In this document: positions 22,661-58,772 of the stretch, one piece after another
Numbering within the stretch: the stretch's first letter is position 1
Layout of the letters: the number at the start of each line of letters is the position of its first letter
IMG/VR virus record: IMGVR_UViG_3300034198_017889
Coordinates: 39,845-103,844 of that record
DNA length: 64,000 bases
DNA from: a virus
Reading direction: 5' to 3' (one strand)
Made by a program: the position numbers and the translations under genes
The notes under the pieces: generated by a model
Databases searched by the model: none
Told to the model about the DNA's origin: nothing
The model's input: only the letters and a program-made list of their open reading frames with translations

Positions 22661-22665
22661 CATAC

Positions 22666-22691
22666 CCCCCCAGTTATTGGGGGGATTTTTT
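22666..22691 (+). terminator. Strong intrinsic terminator
   Basis: Six C (22666-22671) pair with six G (22679-22684) around the 7-nt loop AGTTATT. After one A comes a run of six T (22686-22691). It closes the small-gene cluster and is immediately followed by a TATAAT. Confidence 0.85.
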
Positions 22692-22694
22692 AGG

Positions 22695-22700
22695 TATAAT
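22695..22700 (+). promoter_or_regulatory. -10 element for the RNA region
   Basis: A perfect TATAAT begins 4 nt after the terminator T-run. No good -35 is seen; TTATTG at 22674 overlaps the terminator with a 15-nt spacer. The terminator-promoter arrangement suggests that the following non-coding region is transcribed independently. Confidence 0.45.
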
Positions 22701-22701
22701 A

Positions 22702-23282
22702 GATTGATAACAGTAGAGATGTTTGGCTTCCTCGGAAGCTAACGTTTCATTTCAGTACTGATATCACCCAAAATAAAACAAAACAAATTACGAACCTTTT
22801 TATAGGTTACGTTACATTTATTAGCCCTTTGGTTTGGACTCGTCTATGCGAGTATAAATAGCCAATTAGGCATAGAGCGTCCTGGGCCTCGGTCCGGGGG
22901 ATTGGGCGCAGCAAGGATAGACTATCGATGTCTATTGAAAGGTAAGTGGTAAATAACCCCACAAGATGACAACCTCACTGGTGACTGCAAGAAGCCGTGA
23001 ACAAACCATCCGCCTCGCTTATGAGACTTGCAGGTATCATAGCAGGAACGCGCCCACCTTTTTAGGAGGTACCGAGACAGACCAATAATTAGTATATGTA
23101 TATTAAGATCTCGAGTACCTCCGAAATTTTAGAACTAGTGAGTAGAGCATGGAGAGATCCCATGACACAATGATAGTTTAATTTATAACAACTTTGCTGG
23201 TTGGAGTTAGACTATCGTTTGGTGATGATCACACGAGTTCGTTTTTAGTTGAAATAGTTACCCCTGAGGGTTATTATTTTTT
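22702..23282 (+). ncRNA. Large structured non-coding RNA 1 (~580 nt), ROOL-size
   Basis: The stretch has no convincing reading frame and many local inverted repeats, for example GGCTTCC/GGAAGC around 22724-22739 and GGACTCGTCTATGCGAGT near 22836. It is bounded by a TATAAT upstream and by a hairpin plus T-rich run (23260-23282) downstream. Its length and its neighbourhood (phage, tRNAs, tmRNA) resemble the large ornate phage RNAs ROOL and GOLLD. I cannot confirm a match to either by eye. It has no RNase P or group I intron signature that I can recognise. Confidence 0.5.
23260..23282 (+). terminator. Weak terminator-like hairpin before the tmRNA
   Basis: ACCC (23260-23263) pairs with GGGT (23268-23271) around the tetraloop CTGA, followed by TATTATTTTTTA. 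The stem is only four pairs plus one beyond a mismatch, so termination may be partial. The tmRNA begins 10 nt later. Confidence 0.35.
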
Positions 23283-23291
23283 AGTATTTAC

Positions 23292-23726
23292 GGGGGCGTA
23301 ACAGGCACTCGAGCTTACAAATAGATATCACACCCACATGCGGAGGACTCCAGTTGGCCTCCTTAATCACCTGGAACAAAAAATAAAAGCAAACTCTAAC
23401 GAGATGCTTGCTCCTAGCCTCGCCGAGGCAGACGCCATTCTTAATCAGTTTGGCTATGCTGACCGTGAGCTCCTCGCTGCCTAACCGCAGCGGAGAAATC
23501 CGCTAGTTGCAATAACGGTACAGGGACGCCCGATGCCCAGTACTTCAAACGGGTACCTCAATTATCTCGTGAGGGTATAATTTAGATACGCACCTATTGC
23601 GTTAAGTGGGAAATCTGAGTTACGCATTTACACATTATTGTAACTCTTATATTAAATGTGAAAAGCATGTAAACGGTTGGTTGAAATAAGTAAGTGACAG
23701 GGGTTCGATTCCCCTCGCCTCCACCA
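23292..23726 (+). ncRNA. ssrA: tmRNA (transfer-messenger RNA)
   Basis: The 5' GGGGGCG (23292-23298) pairs fully with CGCCTCC (23716-23722), followed by discriminator A and an encoded CCA. The third pair is G-U, the alanine identity element expected of tmRNA. A T-arm AGGGG/TTCGATT/CCCCT precedes the acceptor. CTTAC (23314-23318) can pair with GTAAG (23690-23694) to form the helix 2 base. A pseudoknot-like GGAGG...CCAG...CCTCC...CTGG (about 23342-23373) precedes an A-rich stretch and the resume codon GCA at 23389. The tag frame ends in LLAA and TAA. A GAAA-capped hairpin AGCGGA/TCCGCT (23489-23504) follows. Together these define a tmRNA that would rescue stalled ribosomes. At about 435 nt it is somewhat long. 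No SmpB gene is seen in the window. Confidence 0.92.
23389..23484 (+). other. tmRNA tag reading frame (31 codons plus stop)
   Basis: From the resume codon GCA the frame reads ANSNEMLAPSL at the start and ends YADRELLAA before TAA (23482-23484). The C-terminal LAA matches the degradation signal of known tags recognised by ClpXP-type proteases. Thirty-one residues is long compared with typical bacterial tags, which are often about 10-20. It is a translated part of the tmRNA, not an independent gene. Confidence 0.88.
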
Positions 23727-23730
23727 ATTT

Positions 23731-23812
23731 GATTATAGAAAAGATTCCGAGGTAATGCTCGGTCGTGGGTAACATCGTCTAAAGCCATGGACCTATAATC
23801 ATTATTTTTAAG
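23731..23812 (+). ncRNA. Small hairpin RNA directly downstream of the tmRNA
   Basis: GATTATAG (23731-23738) and CTATAATC (23793-23800) form a perfect 8-bp closing stem. Inside, CCGAG/CTCGG (23747-23762) forms a second hairpin. The closing stem is followed by a T-rich ATTATTTTTAA, so the element could end tmRNA transcription or be a small RNA itself. Confidence 0.5.
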
Positions 23813-24605
23813 ATGTCGAACCCCGTCGGCCCCTTGTCCAATACCATGGACTGGGGTCGACAACATTTTGACCTGCACAGGGGTTAACACCTGTACGCTA
23901 AAGCAGGATAGAGAACATAGCGTGACTTCTCTCGCTCCTCCTGGCGGCGTTATAACTGCCCAGGTTCATATTCTCGATGAGTGATGCGTTCTTTGTTTTC
24001 AGCCGCGTCGCTCTGGTTGGCCCATGAGGAGATGGTTTGAGAAAACTCCTATGACACTCGGGAAAGACCGGGACACTTTGACTAGGGCGCAGGTCTAATA
24101 TTGCAAAAAGACTCCCGCGACAGGCGATAGCGAAGCACTCGGCCGGGTGAACGTGTAGCCTGTAAGAAATACCGTTAAGGTATTCCTAGTCATCCCTTTG
24201 AAACCTTCGCGCTACATAATTCCCACATATGTAGCGCGAAGGCTACTTTATCCTGGTTCAGAAGAGGCCACCGCCTGACTAACCGATTTATGATATCGGA
24301 GGTCTATGCTCTCAGGAACAACGAGAACCTTCCCTTGCGCAGGGGTCTGTTCTGGTGCTGATAGACCGCAGAAGTCTATCTACAGAGCCCAGCCTGGGCG
24401 TATAAACTCAGGCTAGGGCTCAAATTTTAATCCGGGGAATCCCTTTGCGATAAGTTAACAGGAATATTAGAACCTAGTTAATGTGTCAGAAAAACCCGTA
24501 TCTCGAAGACGTTTAGGGCGAATAGAGAGCACTGATCCAGCAGTGGCTAACACAAACTGGAACACTCTAAGAAGAAACACTAACTATTTGTGGGTGCTTC
24601 TTTTT
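23813..24605 (+). ncRNA. Large structured non-coding RNA 2 (~800 nt), GOLLD-size
   Basis: Dense, strong helices and no reading frame. TGTCGA-CCCC pairs with GGGG-TCGACA (23814-23862). CCTGC/GCAGG encloses ACAGG/CCTGT (23870-23910). A perfect 15-bp hairpin lies at 24204-24242 (loop ATTCCCACA), a 7-bp GATAGAC/GTCTATC hairpin at 24360-24380, and a 12-bp hairpin with one mismatch at 24385-24421. A terminator-like hairpin ends it. Size and context recall GOLLD-type phage RNAs; this family assignment is inference. A covariance-model search would decide. Confidence 0.6.
24571..24605 (+). terminator. Terminator at the end of large RNA 2
   Basis: GAAG (24571-24574) pairs with CTTC (24597-24600) and CAC (24578-24580) with GTG (24590-24592), followed by TTTTT. 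It is a moderately strong intrinsic terminator and marks the probable 3' end of the RNA region. Confidence 0.55.
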
Positions 24606-24656
24606 AGCTAACAGAAACCACACTAAACAAAGCACAAACACAAACATACCTACCCC

Positions 24657-32358: not shown

Positions 32359-33486
32359 ATGATACAACAAAACACGCAAATATTTGGAAAACCAGATTCA
32401 CTAAGTCAGATTAGGGTAGAGTTCATATATAATTTAAAATACGGAACCGTACCGTCCAAGCTAGTTATCGGAGAGGACTTACTTGCTGAACCTGTACTGG
32501 ATTATATTTCCAAGTACTTCAGTAAGGAGTCCACAGAATTCTCCTACAAGAATGGAGTAATGAGTGAATCCAGTTTCTGGTTATCCACCGGAGATAAGTA
32601 TGGAGATATGATATTAGAAACAAGCGAGTCCGGGGGTGGGGCACATTACTCAGGATCAATAGATGACCCAATAATTTACAAACCCAAGCGCGGGAATGGA
32701 GATTCTCCTGAGTTGTGTGTAGTCACGGCGGTTTGCGGAAGTAACGATAAGCTAATAGCTATCTGTGATGCGCTTAAAGATTATAAGTATGTCTCTAAGT
32801 CTAAGATCTATCTCCTGGCTAACCAGTATGGCGAGATAAGCTTAAAGCCTCTGGATATACCGGAGTCTAAGTCTGATCTTAAGCTGAATTACGGAAAAAA
32901 GTTTAGTGCACTGCATGAGGAAATCATTTCCTCTCTGAATAATAAATCTTCAGGACTTTACTTGTTTTACGGTGAGCCTGGAACAGGGAAGTCGTCATAT
33001 ATCAAACATCTCCTATCCTCAATAACAGAGAGAAAGATTGTTTATATTCCGATTAACCTGATTGATCACCTAGTATCTCCTGACTTTATCCCACTCCTTA
33101 TGAGTAACAGGAATATGATTCTTGTTATCGAGGACGCTGAGAAAGCCCTGATATCCAGAGAAGAGAACACCGGTAATGCTTCTATCGTTTCAGCAATATT
33201 GAACCTCACAGACAGCTTTATCAGCAGTACCTTGAACGTGACTATTATTGCCACATTCAATACTAGAAAAGATAAACTAGATAAAGCCCTACTCCGAAAG
33301 GGTAGACTTAAGATCAGTCATGAATTTGATAAGCTTGATGTGAAAGATGCCCAGAACTTGGTAGATTCTTTGGGGTTAGACCACAAGGTCACAGAAGCAA
33401 TGACTATTGCGGATATTTATTATCTGAACGAAGACAATCACTTGGCAGAGGAAAAACCTCAACCAATAATTGGATTCGGTAGTTAA
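32359..33486 (+). CDS. BCS1-like AAA+ ATPase
   Basis: This 375-residue protein has Walker A GEPGTGKSS (about residues 205-213), Walker B ILVIEDAEKA (about 255-264), a sensor-like IIATFNTRKDKLD and an arginine-containing LLRKGRLKISHEF (about 311-323). This is the order seen in BCS1/ClpX-like AAA+ proteins. The N-terminal 190 residues are a separate beta-rich domain without a transmembrane segment, unlike mitochondrial BCS1. It probably remodels a protein or protein-DNA complex. It follows a small acidic gene and its 3' end overlaps the 3' end of the convergent terminase gene by 4 nt. Confidence 0.8.
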   Translation: MIQQNTQIFGKPDSLSQIRVEFIYNLKYGTVPSKLVIGEDLLAEPVLDYISKYFSKESTEFSYKNGVMSESSFWLSTGDKYGDMILETSESGGGAHYSGSIDDPIIYKPKRGNGDSPELCVVTAVCGSNDKLIAICDALKDYKYVSKSKIYLLANQYGEISLKPLDIPESKSDLKLNYGKKFSALHEEIISSLNNKSSGLYLFYGEPGTGKSSYIKHLLSSITERKIVYIPINLIDHLVSPDFIPLLMSNRNMILVIEDAEKALISREENTGNASIVSAILNLTDSFISSTLNVTIIATFNTRKDKLDKALLRKGRLKISHEFDKLDVKDAQNLVDSLGLDHKVTEAMTIADIYYLNEDNHLAEEKPQPIIGFGS

Positions 33487-35186
33487 TAAGTATCTCTAGA
33501 GCTACTACTTGAGCCCTGGAGACACACATCTCCAGCGGCCATGTAGCCGGAGCAAACAGCAAACAAAAGGCTGTGCATGGCATCGTCAGGTTGGTTAGGG
33601 TTGTGATTATAGAACATCTCTTGACCGTACATACCATCCTTAACCTCAACATAGATGTTAAGAAGATCTTGCATATAGTCAGACACATCCTCCCAGTTAG
33701 GAAATAAGATCTTACCAGCTTTAATCTGGCGGATCACAAGAGAAATAACATCAGAACGGTGGAGAATCCATCGGTTCTGTCTCCAGTCATAGTCTCCGTT
33801 ATCGAAGTACTGAATTACCTTACTCCTCCTGTAAGCAGCTAACTGTGAACGAGTAGGACTAGTTAATTCACATAGTTTGATGCCCCTAATGGGGTCAGGA
33901 CCAGAGTCAGCCACACAATAGGCGTTGTAGTCATTAGCCAGATCAGCAATATTTCTGATGTGTGCCTCATGATCAAAACCTCTATATATCTTAGTAAAGA
34001 AAACCTCATAAACACCATCATTACGCATGGCTCCTATAGTGCATACTGTGCGACTTTGGACCATAGAAACACCCCAATCAACACCTAAAGTATAAATACT
34101 ATATCTTCCCTTATTCTTTTCTTGGATTAGTTTCTTTCCTGTGGAATCAGTCATACGCCCTAGGACACAAACTTTACGAAGCTCTTCCTCTGTGATTGGC
34201 TTGGTTCCAAGATCGAAAGTAAGGCCAAACACCTCGTTCATTATCTTTTTCTGATCATATTTACCGCTGGTGCATTTCTCAAAAACCTCCTTCCACTCTT
34301 TCTCAGTCTCGTTAAAGAAAGGAAGAATTGGCTGAGCTAGATGATAGCCAGTCATTAGGAAGTTTGTGGGATTACCAGCAGCCCATTCACCCTCTCTGGC
34401 ATTTAAACGCTTAGAGCATTTAGAGCAACTTAAACCATGAGCCATAATCATCTTCATGGGGTCATTCCCCTCGGTAAGACTATTCCAGTGACTACAACCA
34501 CACCTCATCATCCACTCAAGCTGATTCGTGGTCTTCCATAGACTGTGAATTGTGTTAGTGGTGTCTAGTGGTGTTCCCGCGAATATCTCTCTCTTGTAGG
34601 GCGAAAGAGCCATAGTTTCCTGAATAATAGGAATCTGATCATACACCATGTCCTGAACCTCATCATAAACAATACAATCAACAGCAGGACCACGAACACG
34701 GGTTGCGTCGTCTTTAACGTATCTAAATAAGATGCTACTGCGGGTATCTCCCATAATCTTTTCAAACACATCATTCTTATCCCAACCTTTCACCAACATT
34801 TTCTTAATCTTAGGACTATCAAACCTGGGTGGAAGGTAATTACTAGAAAAATATTTAACTGTTAATTCTTGAGGCCCAATATAAAGCATCTTGTAGTAGT
34901 TCCATCTCAACATATTCAAACATACGAAGTTACTCAATAGCGTGCTCTTTAAAGTCTTACGACTGCACTTTAAAAGTAACTTCTGCGGCATATTGTCATA
35001 GATATGCTTAAGCATCGGGAAGTCAGTTAAATCCTGAAGCCGCCCCTCATTATCGAACAAATAGTTCTCGACAAAGTGAGAGGGAGGAAGTACCGAGAAA
35101 ATTAATTGTCGAGCTCGAAAGATTGACTCTTTGCTACCAACAGAGAGCAGTTTTTCTATAGTATCTTTGATATCAGTATGGGACAT
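33483..35186 (-). CDS. terL: Terminase large subunit
   Basis: This 567-residue protein is the DNA-packaging motor ATPase and nuclease. Near residue 72-80 is a Walker A-like CSRKTLKST, in which the usual Gly before Lys is Leu. Walker B VYDEVQD is near 170. The RNase H-like nuclease domain has LGVDWGVS (about 371), the acidic segment VADSGPD (about 434) and a C-terminal PDDAMHSLLF (about 534). A Zn-binding-like CGCSHW...CSKCSKR lies between. It translocates DNA into the prohead. It lies on the - strand, opposed to nearly all other genes, and far from the structural block. Head genes and a small terminase subunit are not in the window. Confidence 0.9.
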   Translation of the reverse strand: MSHTDIKDTIEKLLSVGSKESIFRARQLIFSVLPPSHFVENYLFDNEGRLQDLTDFPMLKHIYDNMPQKLLLKCSRKTLKSTLLSNFVCLNMLRWNYYKMLYIGPQELTVKYFSSNYLPPRFDSPKIKKMLVKGWDKNDVFEKIMGDTRSSILFRYVKDDATRVRGPAVDCIVYDEVQDMVYDQIPIIQETMALSPYKREIFAGTPLDTTNTIHSLWKTTNQLEWMMRCGCSHWNSLTEGNDPMKMIMAHGLSCSKCSKRLNAREGEWAAGNPTNFLMTGYHLAQPILPFFNETEKEWKEVFEKCTSGKYDQKKIMNEVFGLTFDLGTKPITEEELRKVCVLGRMTDSTGKKLIQEKNKGRYSIYTLGVDWGVSMVQSRTVCTIGAMRNDGVYEVFFTKIYRGFDHEAHIRNIADLANDYNAYCVADSGPDPIRGIKLCELTSPTRSQLAAYRRSKVIQYFDNGDYDWRQNRWILHRSDVISLVIRQIKAGKILFPNWEDVSDYMQDLLNIYVEVKDGMYGQEMFYNHNPNQPDDAMHSLLFAVCSGYMAAGDVCLQGSSSSSRDTY

Positions 35187-57704: not shown

Positions 57705-58183
57705 TGGCCATAACGTACGATACATCAAACAATATGGGCCTTATTAAACAGATAAATAAAAGACTATCCCGTGTTATCACAGGTGCTGCTATGGAGTGTC
57801 GTCGGAACACGGAAGAAGAAGGTGGAATAGTCCTGACTCGAAAGGGTCAGGACTTCATCTTTGTTAAAGTTAAAAATCTCCACGAGGGTGAGCCAACGGC
57901 ATATGGATTATATGTTGCTGATCCCGAGGAGTTTGGACAAAAAGTGATACCTATGATTGGTGCGGGTTGGGAAATGTATGCGAGTTTTCACACTCACCCA
58001 CAGTTCTCACCTCTACCTAGTCAGTTGGACTACGATAAGTTGTTCCAGGGTTTCAAGTATAACTACATCTTCTCTAACCGAGATCGTGAGTTTTCATGCT
58101 CTGAGTGGTCAGCACAAAAAGACCTTCACACATTCACAATTAAACTAGAATCATTAATATACCTAACTAACTACAATGACTAA
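57704..58183 (+). CDS. JAB/JAMM metallopeptidase
   Basis: This 159-residue protein (from MAITYDTSNN) has a complete JAMM signature: a Glu in EEEGGIVLT (about residue 37) and FHTHPQFSPLPSQLDYD (about 93-109), which gives H-x-H-x7-S-x2-D. In eukaryotes such enzymes remove ubiquitin; in bacteria and phages they process tail proteins, peptides or ubiquitin-like proteins. It overlaps the E1-like gene by 8 nt, as in ubiquitin-like operons of prokaryotes. No NlpC/P60 domain is fused, unlike lambda gpK, which disfavours a tail-assembly role. The ATG at 57704 was chosen because of the TAATG coupling with the upstream exonuclease. Confidence 0.82.
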   Translation: MAITYDTSNNMGLIKQINKRLSRVITGAAMECRRNTEEEGGIVLTRKGQDFIFVKVKNLHEGEPTAYGLYVADPEEFGQKVIPMIGAGWEMYASFHTHPQFSPLPSQLDYDKLFQGFKYNYIFSNRDREFSCSEWSAQKDLHTFTIKLESLIYLTNYND

Positions 58184-58772
58184 GCTAAAGAAAATCGGTA
58201 TCGCGGGTGCGGGTGGAATTGGATCTAATCTCCTAGCCATCCTTTTTGACTACGGGTTCAATCGTAAACAGTTCGACTATTCGAGCGTTGACGTTGATAT
58301 CTATGATGATGACGTTATCGACACTAGTAACTTACTCCATCAGAACTACAAGATTGATGATGTGGGTAAGCCTAAGGTTGAGGTTATGGAGGATCGCTAT
58401 GTTGTAAAGGGCATTAATAAGTTCATGGAGGAGAAAGACTTCAAGAAATATGATGTTATTTTCAGCTGTGTGGACAGTATGGAGTTTCGTAGAACACTAT
58501 ATAATTGGGGATTCAGTAACCCGGGAAAAGCATTCTGGATTGATGGACGTTGCACTAGCCGCCAAGGTGGTTTGTTCAATTCTGATCTTCCTGAGGATGA
58601 GCTTAAGAAGTACATCACGGATGATAACATTCGTGGTGGTTGCTTGCTAAAGTATGAGAAGGAACAAAACATCAGCCACACACTTCCAACGGTTGTTGCA
58701 GGTATGATGGTTCAGGTGTTCTTGAACTTCCTACGCGGAGAAAAAACAGACAAGAAACTATTCATGATCTAA
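58176..58772 (+). CDS. E1/ThiF-like adenylyltransferase
   Basis: This 198-residue protein has the Rossmann motif IGIAGAGGIGSN (residues 7-18), DVDIYDDDVIDTSNLLHQN (about 39-57), VGKPKVEVMEDR (about 63-74) and VIFSCVDSMEFRR (about 90-102), the ATP-binding landmarks of ThiF/MoeB/E1 enzymes. Cys occurs in DGRCTSRQ (about 127) and GGCLLKYE. The zinc-binding CxxC pairs of MoeB are absent, so it is a short form. It would adenylate the C-terminus of a ubiquitin-like protein. It is coupled to the JAB gene. No E2 gene is seen. Confidence 0.82.
   Translation: MTKLKKIGIAGAGGIGSNLLAILFDYGFNRKQFDYSSVDVDIYDDDVIDTSNLLHQNYKIDDVGKPKVEVMEDRYVVKGINKFMEEKDFKKYDVIFSCVDSMEFRRTLYNWGFSNPGKAFWIDGRCTSRQGGLFNSDLPEDELKKYITDDNIRGGCLLKYEKEQNISHTLPTVVAGMMVQVFLNFLRGEKTDKKLFMI

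What the first reader, a model, noticed from the sequence alone, without database searches (positions are those of the whole stretch)
23292..23726. Phage-encoded tmRNA with an unusually long 31-residue tag
Seen: a perfect 7-bp acceptor with G3-U70, T-arm, encoded CCA, pseudoknot-like element, and a resume frame ending LLAA. Known: tmRNA with SmpB tags stalled proteins for proteolysis; phage tmRNAs are rare. Inferred: the phage rescues ribosomes during mRNA decay, perhaps with a tag that directs products differently from the host tag. The long tag (most are shorter) may carry extra binding sites, for example a second protease-adaptor site.
Basis: partly seen in the sequence, partly recalled or inferred. 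Interest (0 to 1): 0.82.

Follow-up and report, generated by a model that had tools for sequence, protein, structure and literature searches.

The report
Phage tmRNA with conserved long tag
This uncultivated bacterial virus carries its own copy of the ribosome-rescue RNA (tmRNA), and the peptide that RNA would add to unfinished proteins is about three times the usual length and has an inner segment conserved across unrelated viruses but found in no sampled bacterium, so viruses may use a protein tag of their own.

Summary
In detail: 23292-23726 (+) is a complete one-piece tmRNA gene (ARAGORN; Rfam RF00023, 86.4 bits) encoding ANSNEMLAPSLAEADAILNQFGYADRELLAA, 31 residues. It lies in a 104-kb IMG/VR virus record with terminase, polymerase and helicase genes. 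Phage tmRNAs as such are known. The new part came from comparison. At least 48 viral contigs carry tmRNAs whose 30-35-residue tags share one inner core, [FLY]APS[VL]AEAD[AE]xLxxxGY, before the usual ...LAA end. The core is under peptide-level selection (pN/pS 0.31 against 0.90 for shuffled columns). It occurs in two 160-180 kb viruses that lack this virus's terminase family. It was not found in the 84,980 bacterial and archaeal species genomes, plasmids, or named phages searched. In a sample chosen by the T-arm, not the tag, viral tags are bimodal: 53 of 77 have 8-15 residues, 24 have 21-33, none 16-20. Acceptor, P2, PK1 and T-arm covary, with G3-U70 invariant. No SmpB was found, so host SmpB is probably used. 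Best reading: a functional tmRNA adding a two-part tag, a ClpX-type end plus a helical element for an unidentified partner. Tagging and partner are inferred. In three relatives a group-I-like intron interrupts the T-loop.

The parts
23292..23726 (+). one-piece tmRNA (ssrA) gene, mature 5' end to encoded CCA
   Evidence: ARAGORN; RF00023 86.4 bits, full model; covariation
23292..23298 (+). acceptor stem 5' strand GGGGGCG, G3 pairs with U70
   Evidence: G3-U70 in 27/27 relatives, other acceptor pairs covary
23337..23341 (+). end of helix P2 5' strand CATGC (pairs with 23665-23669)
   Evidence: CATGC/GCATG, CAAGC/GCTTG, CACGT/ACGTG variants
23342..23375 (+). pseudoknot PK1: GGAGG 23342-23346 / CCTCC 23358-23362 and TCCAG 23349-23353 / CTGGA 23371-23375
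23389..23484 (+). tag reading frame, resume codon GCA to stop TAA; 31 residues ANSNEMLAPSLAEADAILNQFGYADRELLAA
   Evidence: invariant A at -4 and resume G; peptide-level selection
23407..23454 (+). codons of the conserved inner tag core LAPSLAEADAILNQFG
   Evidence: conserved across at least 48 viral contigs
23665..23669 (+). helix P2 3' strand GCATG
23699..23715 (+). T-arm AGGGG-TTCGATT-CCCCT; the group-I-like intron of three relatives sits between the bases equivalent to 23709 and 23710
23716..23726 (+). acceptor stem 3' strand CGCCTCC, then ACCA
23249..23277 (+). promoter-like TTGAAA-17-TATTAT just upstream of the gene (weak: 3 such sites found in the region, 3.7 expected)
   Evidence: inference

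Best explanation
It is a working phage tmRNA gene. The RNA is charged with alanine by the host enzyme (G3-U70), binds host SmpB because none was found in the virus, enters ribosomes stalled on broken mRNAs, and adds a 31-residue tag before release at the tag stop codon. The tag is two-part. The ...LAA end is read by host ClpX or a similar AAA+ protease. The inner, helix-forming core APS-x-AEADA-x-L is a second recognition element for an adaptor or other partner, the same logic as the E. coli tag, where AANDENY binds SspB and ALAA binds ClpX. The virus would thereby rescue ribosomes during infection and control the fate of unfinished proteins with its own tag. Shown here: gene, structure, frame, and conservation of the peptide. 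Inferred: activity, degradation, partner.
For: Gene model and covariation. Invariant A(-4) and resume G, matching the frame rule for A86 in E. coli tmRNA (PMC2481249). Tag core pN 0.225, pS 0.717, ratio 0.31, against a column-shuffle mean of 0.90 and minimum 0.52, 0 of 200; third-position entropy 1.41 against 0.50 and 0.52; the conserved Ser is coded by both AGY and TCN. Tags end in AA in nearly all members. The core is shared by viruses without a detectable common terminase or polymerase. AlphaFold2 gives a helix at residues 11-20, mean pLDDT 73. Two-part precedent: PMC8512704. No SmpB in 30 records, control rings in 10 of 14.
Against: No expression or tagging data. No adaptor candidate was found; proteins shared between the distant long-tag viruses are mostly nucleotide-metabolism enzymes. 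The host is unknown. The distribution of bacterial tag lengths was not measured here. Records are fragments, so absence of SmpB is not final.
Confidence: 0.6

Rival explanations
1. Ordinary host-type tmRNA: the tag is a plain ClpXP degron and the extra length is only a spacer or solubility segment; no special partner.
For: The ...LAA end is kept; long tags of quite different sequence exist in other viral tmRNAs; in E. coli degron tests a longer sequence before ALAA raised efficiency (PMC8512704).
Against: A mere spacer would not keep APS-x-AEADA-x-L residue by residue while synonymous sites are saturated.
Confidence: 0.25
2. The long tag is copied from the host: the bacterial host has the same tag and the phage only matches it.
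For: Many phage tmRNAs carry host-like tags (ANDENYALAA types).
Against: Two scans of 84,980 bacterial and archaeal species genomes gave 367 and 467 pattern matches, none confirmed as this tag. Confirmation needed tblastn E <= 1e-3, so weaker relatives could be missed.
Confidence: 0.1
3. Protective or diverting tag: the core binds or blocks a host or phage protein, so tagged products are diverted or host proteolysis is titrated rather than simply fed.
For: Peptide-level selection and absence from sampled bacteria; a TLD-only phage tmRNA (DS6A) is reported to inhibit tmRNA when expressed in E. coli (PMC4131195, PMC11915505).
Against: The intact ...LAA end argues for delivery to a protease; no partner known.
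Confidence: 0.2
4. The conservation reflects RNA structure, not peptide; the real tag is shorter.
For: tmRNA coding ends often lie in helices (general knowledge).
Against: Third positions vary most, entropy 1.41 against about 0.5; A(-4) and resume G are invariant at the predicted start.
Confidence: 0.04

Closest known systems
Canonical one-piece bacterial tmRNA (Rfam RF00023)
   Same: acceptor with G3-U70, T-arm, PK1, resume codon after A(-4), tag ending in AA, one-piece gene with encoded CCA
   Different: 31-residue tag with a conserved inner core; the most frequent database tag length is 10 (PMC11915505)
Gordonia phage GodonK tmRNA (84631-85159 -, not annotated as tmRNA in the record; found here)
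   Same: phage-encoded, long tag (read here as AEADVVVSDSDIAEIEAYANEAALV, 25 residues) with an acidic/alanine-rich inner part
   Different: no APSxAEADAxL core, ends ALV; only the T-arm and acceptor end is similar as DNA
Mycobacteriophage Bxz1-type tmRNAs (listed in PMC4131195)
   Same: phage one-piece tmRNAs; recalled from memory as having a 25-residue tag
   Different: tag not checked: records absent from the collection and the tblastn query found nothing
Phage Melnitz and pelagiphage permuted tmRNAs (PMC9004378)
   Same: aquatic phage-encoded tmRNA
   Different: two-piece, permuted, related to SAR11 tmRNAs; this one is one-piece
E. coli ssrA tag AANDENYALAA with SspB and ClpX (PMC8512704)
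   Same: proposed two-part logic: inner adaptor site plus ClpX end
   Different: no SspB-type motif recognised here; inner core unrelated in sequence

Membership tests
tmRNA (RF00023) | covariance-model score above gathering | tested here: met
   86.4 bits against 47
tmRNA (RF00023) | 7-bp acceptor with G3-U70 and T-arm | tested here: met
   G3-U70 in 27/27
tmRNA (RF00023) | PK1 upstream of the resume codon | tested here: met
   both PK1 stems found, with changes on both sides; stem b 85% paired
tmRNA (RF00023) | open tag frame with resume codon after A(-4), stop, AA end | tested here: met
tmRNA (RF00023) | alanine charging, SmpB binding, trans-translation | not testable with these tools
   needs biochemistry
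Permuted (two-piece) tmRNA | 3' piece precedes 5' piece in the gene | tested here: not met
   gene is colinear
Phage long-tag tmRNA group defined here | inner core [FLY]A[PM][ST][VL]xEA[DE]xxL in a 30-35 residue tag inside a tmRNA | tested here: met
   the one locus without a standard T-arm (L300) still scores 70.6 bits with RF00023
Two-part degron with adaptor site (SspB type) | inner tag segment binds an adaptor | not testable with these tools
   inferred from conservation only

The most novel reading that the evidence does not exclude
Several lineages of aquatic phages share a phage-specific class of trans-translation tag in which a conserved helical core hands unfinished proteins, or the protease itself, to a partner that host tags do not engage, so infection rewires ribosome-rescue proteolysis.
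Probability: 0.3. Interest if true: 0.8.

Novelty: new variant of a known kind. Interest (0 to 1): 0.6.

Why it matters
Why phages carry tmRNA at all is open. A tag core that viruses keep at the peptide level, and that sampled bacteria lack, gives a direct handle: it can be fused to reporters and used as bait. It also suggests that viral tmRNAs fall into short-tag and long-tag classes, which can be tested at scale. A new degron or adaptor pair would be a useful tool for controlled proteolysis.

Tried and rejected
The tag was compared with Pfam, PHROGs and PDB sequences: no significant match. Bacterial genomes, plasmids and named phages were searched for the tag: nothing credible. SmpB in the viral records: none. 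Named phages with a similar tmRNA body: only T-arm or acceptor-end pieces. A Bacteroidota-type promoter as a clue to the host: 2 sites on + and 4 on -, 1.9 expected per strand, not informative; ribosome-binding sites are scarce (5 of 53 starts, background 16%), which fits a Bacteroidota-like host but does not prove it. A shared adaptor gene in distant long-tag viruses: only common phage enzymes and a few unknown proteins. Reading the conservation as RNA structure was rejected by the codon-position test.

Full report
What is there. ARAGORN and Rfam agree on a one-piece tmRNA at 23292-23726 (+), 435 nt, with the tag ANSNEMLAPSLAEADAILNQFGYADRELLAA. The record is a 103,844-base IMG/VR virus contig. 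Elsewhere in the window lie a large terminase (33483-35186 -), a DnaB-like helicase, a DNA polymerase and a UvsX-like recombinase. The tmRNA sits in a gene-poor stretch of about 2 kb, 22661-24656.

Relatives. The terminase brings in 29 relatives, of which 16 have an RF00023 match, 14 above the gathering score. The two below it (38.7 and 35.1 bits) are intron-interrupted genes, as is one at 73.4 bits. Their tags are all 30-31 residues with a common core. Searching IMG/VR with the tag alignment gave 39 loci and then 44. With the window and three further members, at least 48 contigs carry it. Every one of the 44 loci lies in a tmRNA-like context (PK1 and T-arm around the tag), except that one fragment lacks the 5' part and L300 has an altered T-loop; L300 still scores 70.6 bits with RF00023. 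One member (L044) was found by its T-arm, not by its tag.

Is the long tag real? In 27 aligned tmRNAs the resume G and the A four bases upstream are invariant; that A is the frame-setting base in E. coli (PMC2481249). In the 19-codon core of 30 tmRNAs pN is 0.225 and pS 0.717; the ratio 0.31 lies below all 200 column shuffles. Third positions vary about three times as much as first and second. This is selection on the peptide. The sequences are related, so the 200 shuffles are a yardstick, not an exact probability.

Whose tag is it? Two scans of 84,980 species genomes found no bacterial or archaeal tmRNA with this tag. tblastn of a consensus tag against 50,697 named phages and 72,556 plasmids found nothing credible. 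Two large long-tag viruses (162 and 178 kb) lack the window's terminase, terminase family and DNA polymerase by these searches, and share mainly ligase, ribonucleotide reductase, PhoH, dCMP deaminase and a few other genes with the 182-kb relative and the window. So the tmRNA gene either moved between phage lineages or is old.

How unusual is the length? In 98 viral loci selected by T-arm and acceptor patterns, 77 unique tags split into 53 of 8-15 residues and 24 of 21-33, with none of 16-20. Some long calls may be ARAGORN errors, and ARAGORN also shortens some true long tags (compare). Other long viral tags differ in sequence, some in permuted tmRNAs, for example ANANTFDFSAMSFTGNTVRGAANESRFALAA. 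The tmRNA database gives 10 as the commonest length (PMC11915505). I did not measure the bacterial distribution here.

Function. No SmpB (PF01668) was found in 30 records, while the control rings in 10 of 14 genomes, so host SmpB is likely used. The E. coli tag is two-part: AANDENY binds SspB, ALAA binds ClpX (PMC8512704). By analogy the phage tag pairs a ...LAA end with a conserved core, which AlphaFold2 models as a helix at residues 11-20 with moderate confidence (pLDDT 73). The partner is unknown, and this step is inference.

Intron. In three relatives (L060-L062) the T-loop is interrupted by 653-654 nt. The boundaries follow the group I rules (U before, G at the end), and the site corresponds by my count to the main T-loop site, position 7, of PMC11915505. 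Rfam Intron_gpI scores 22.4 bits, below its cut-off (E 0.002). The antisense strand carries a LAGLIDADG-like frame, also just below the Pfam cut-off. The window copy is uninterrupted.

Verdict. Observation confirmed; interpretation partly supported; new variant of a known kind. The interest lies in the virus-shared, peptide-conserved tag core.

Noticed in passing
22838-22905 (+): Pistol self-cleaving ribozyme (RF02679, 61.3 bits) about 390 nt upstream of the tmRNA; also in five of 29 terminase relatives, four of them shown upstream of their tmRNA. Could trim the 5' leader of a longer transcript.
   Followed up: partly
L060, L061, L062; site equivalent to window 23709/23710: Group-I-like intron of 653-654 nt in the tmRNA T-loop with an antisense LAGLIDADG-like frame; close relatives differ in having it, so it is probably mobile.
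   Followed up: partly
22906-23062, 23727-23869, 24426-24525: Stretches without a called gene, partly conserved (72-90%) in relatives and without a credible Rfam match: candidate unknown structured RNAs around the tmRNA.
   Followed up: partly
L171, L193, L148, L151, L202, L224, L207, L046, L134, L243, L197, L236: Other long tags (24-33 residues) of unrelated sequence in viral tmRNAs, many permuted: several independent long-tag types.
   Followed up: partly
Gordonia phage GodonK MK620899 84631-85159 (-): tmRNA (90.3 bits) not annotated as such in the record, with a long tag frame; one annotated tRNA-His (85019-85080) lies inside it.
   Followed up: partly
58176-58772 (+): ThiF/E1-like protein (PF00899, E 4.6e-19), unexpected in a phage replication region.
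   Followed up: no
L300 1394-1813: tmRNA with the same tag core but an aberrant T-loop (GGGCGCGACTCCC in place of GGGTTCGACTCCC) among several tRNA-Ala genes.
   Followed up: no
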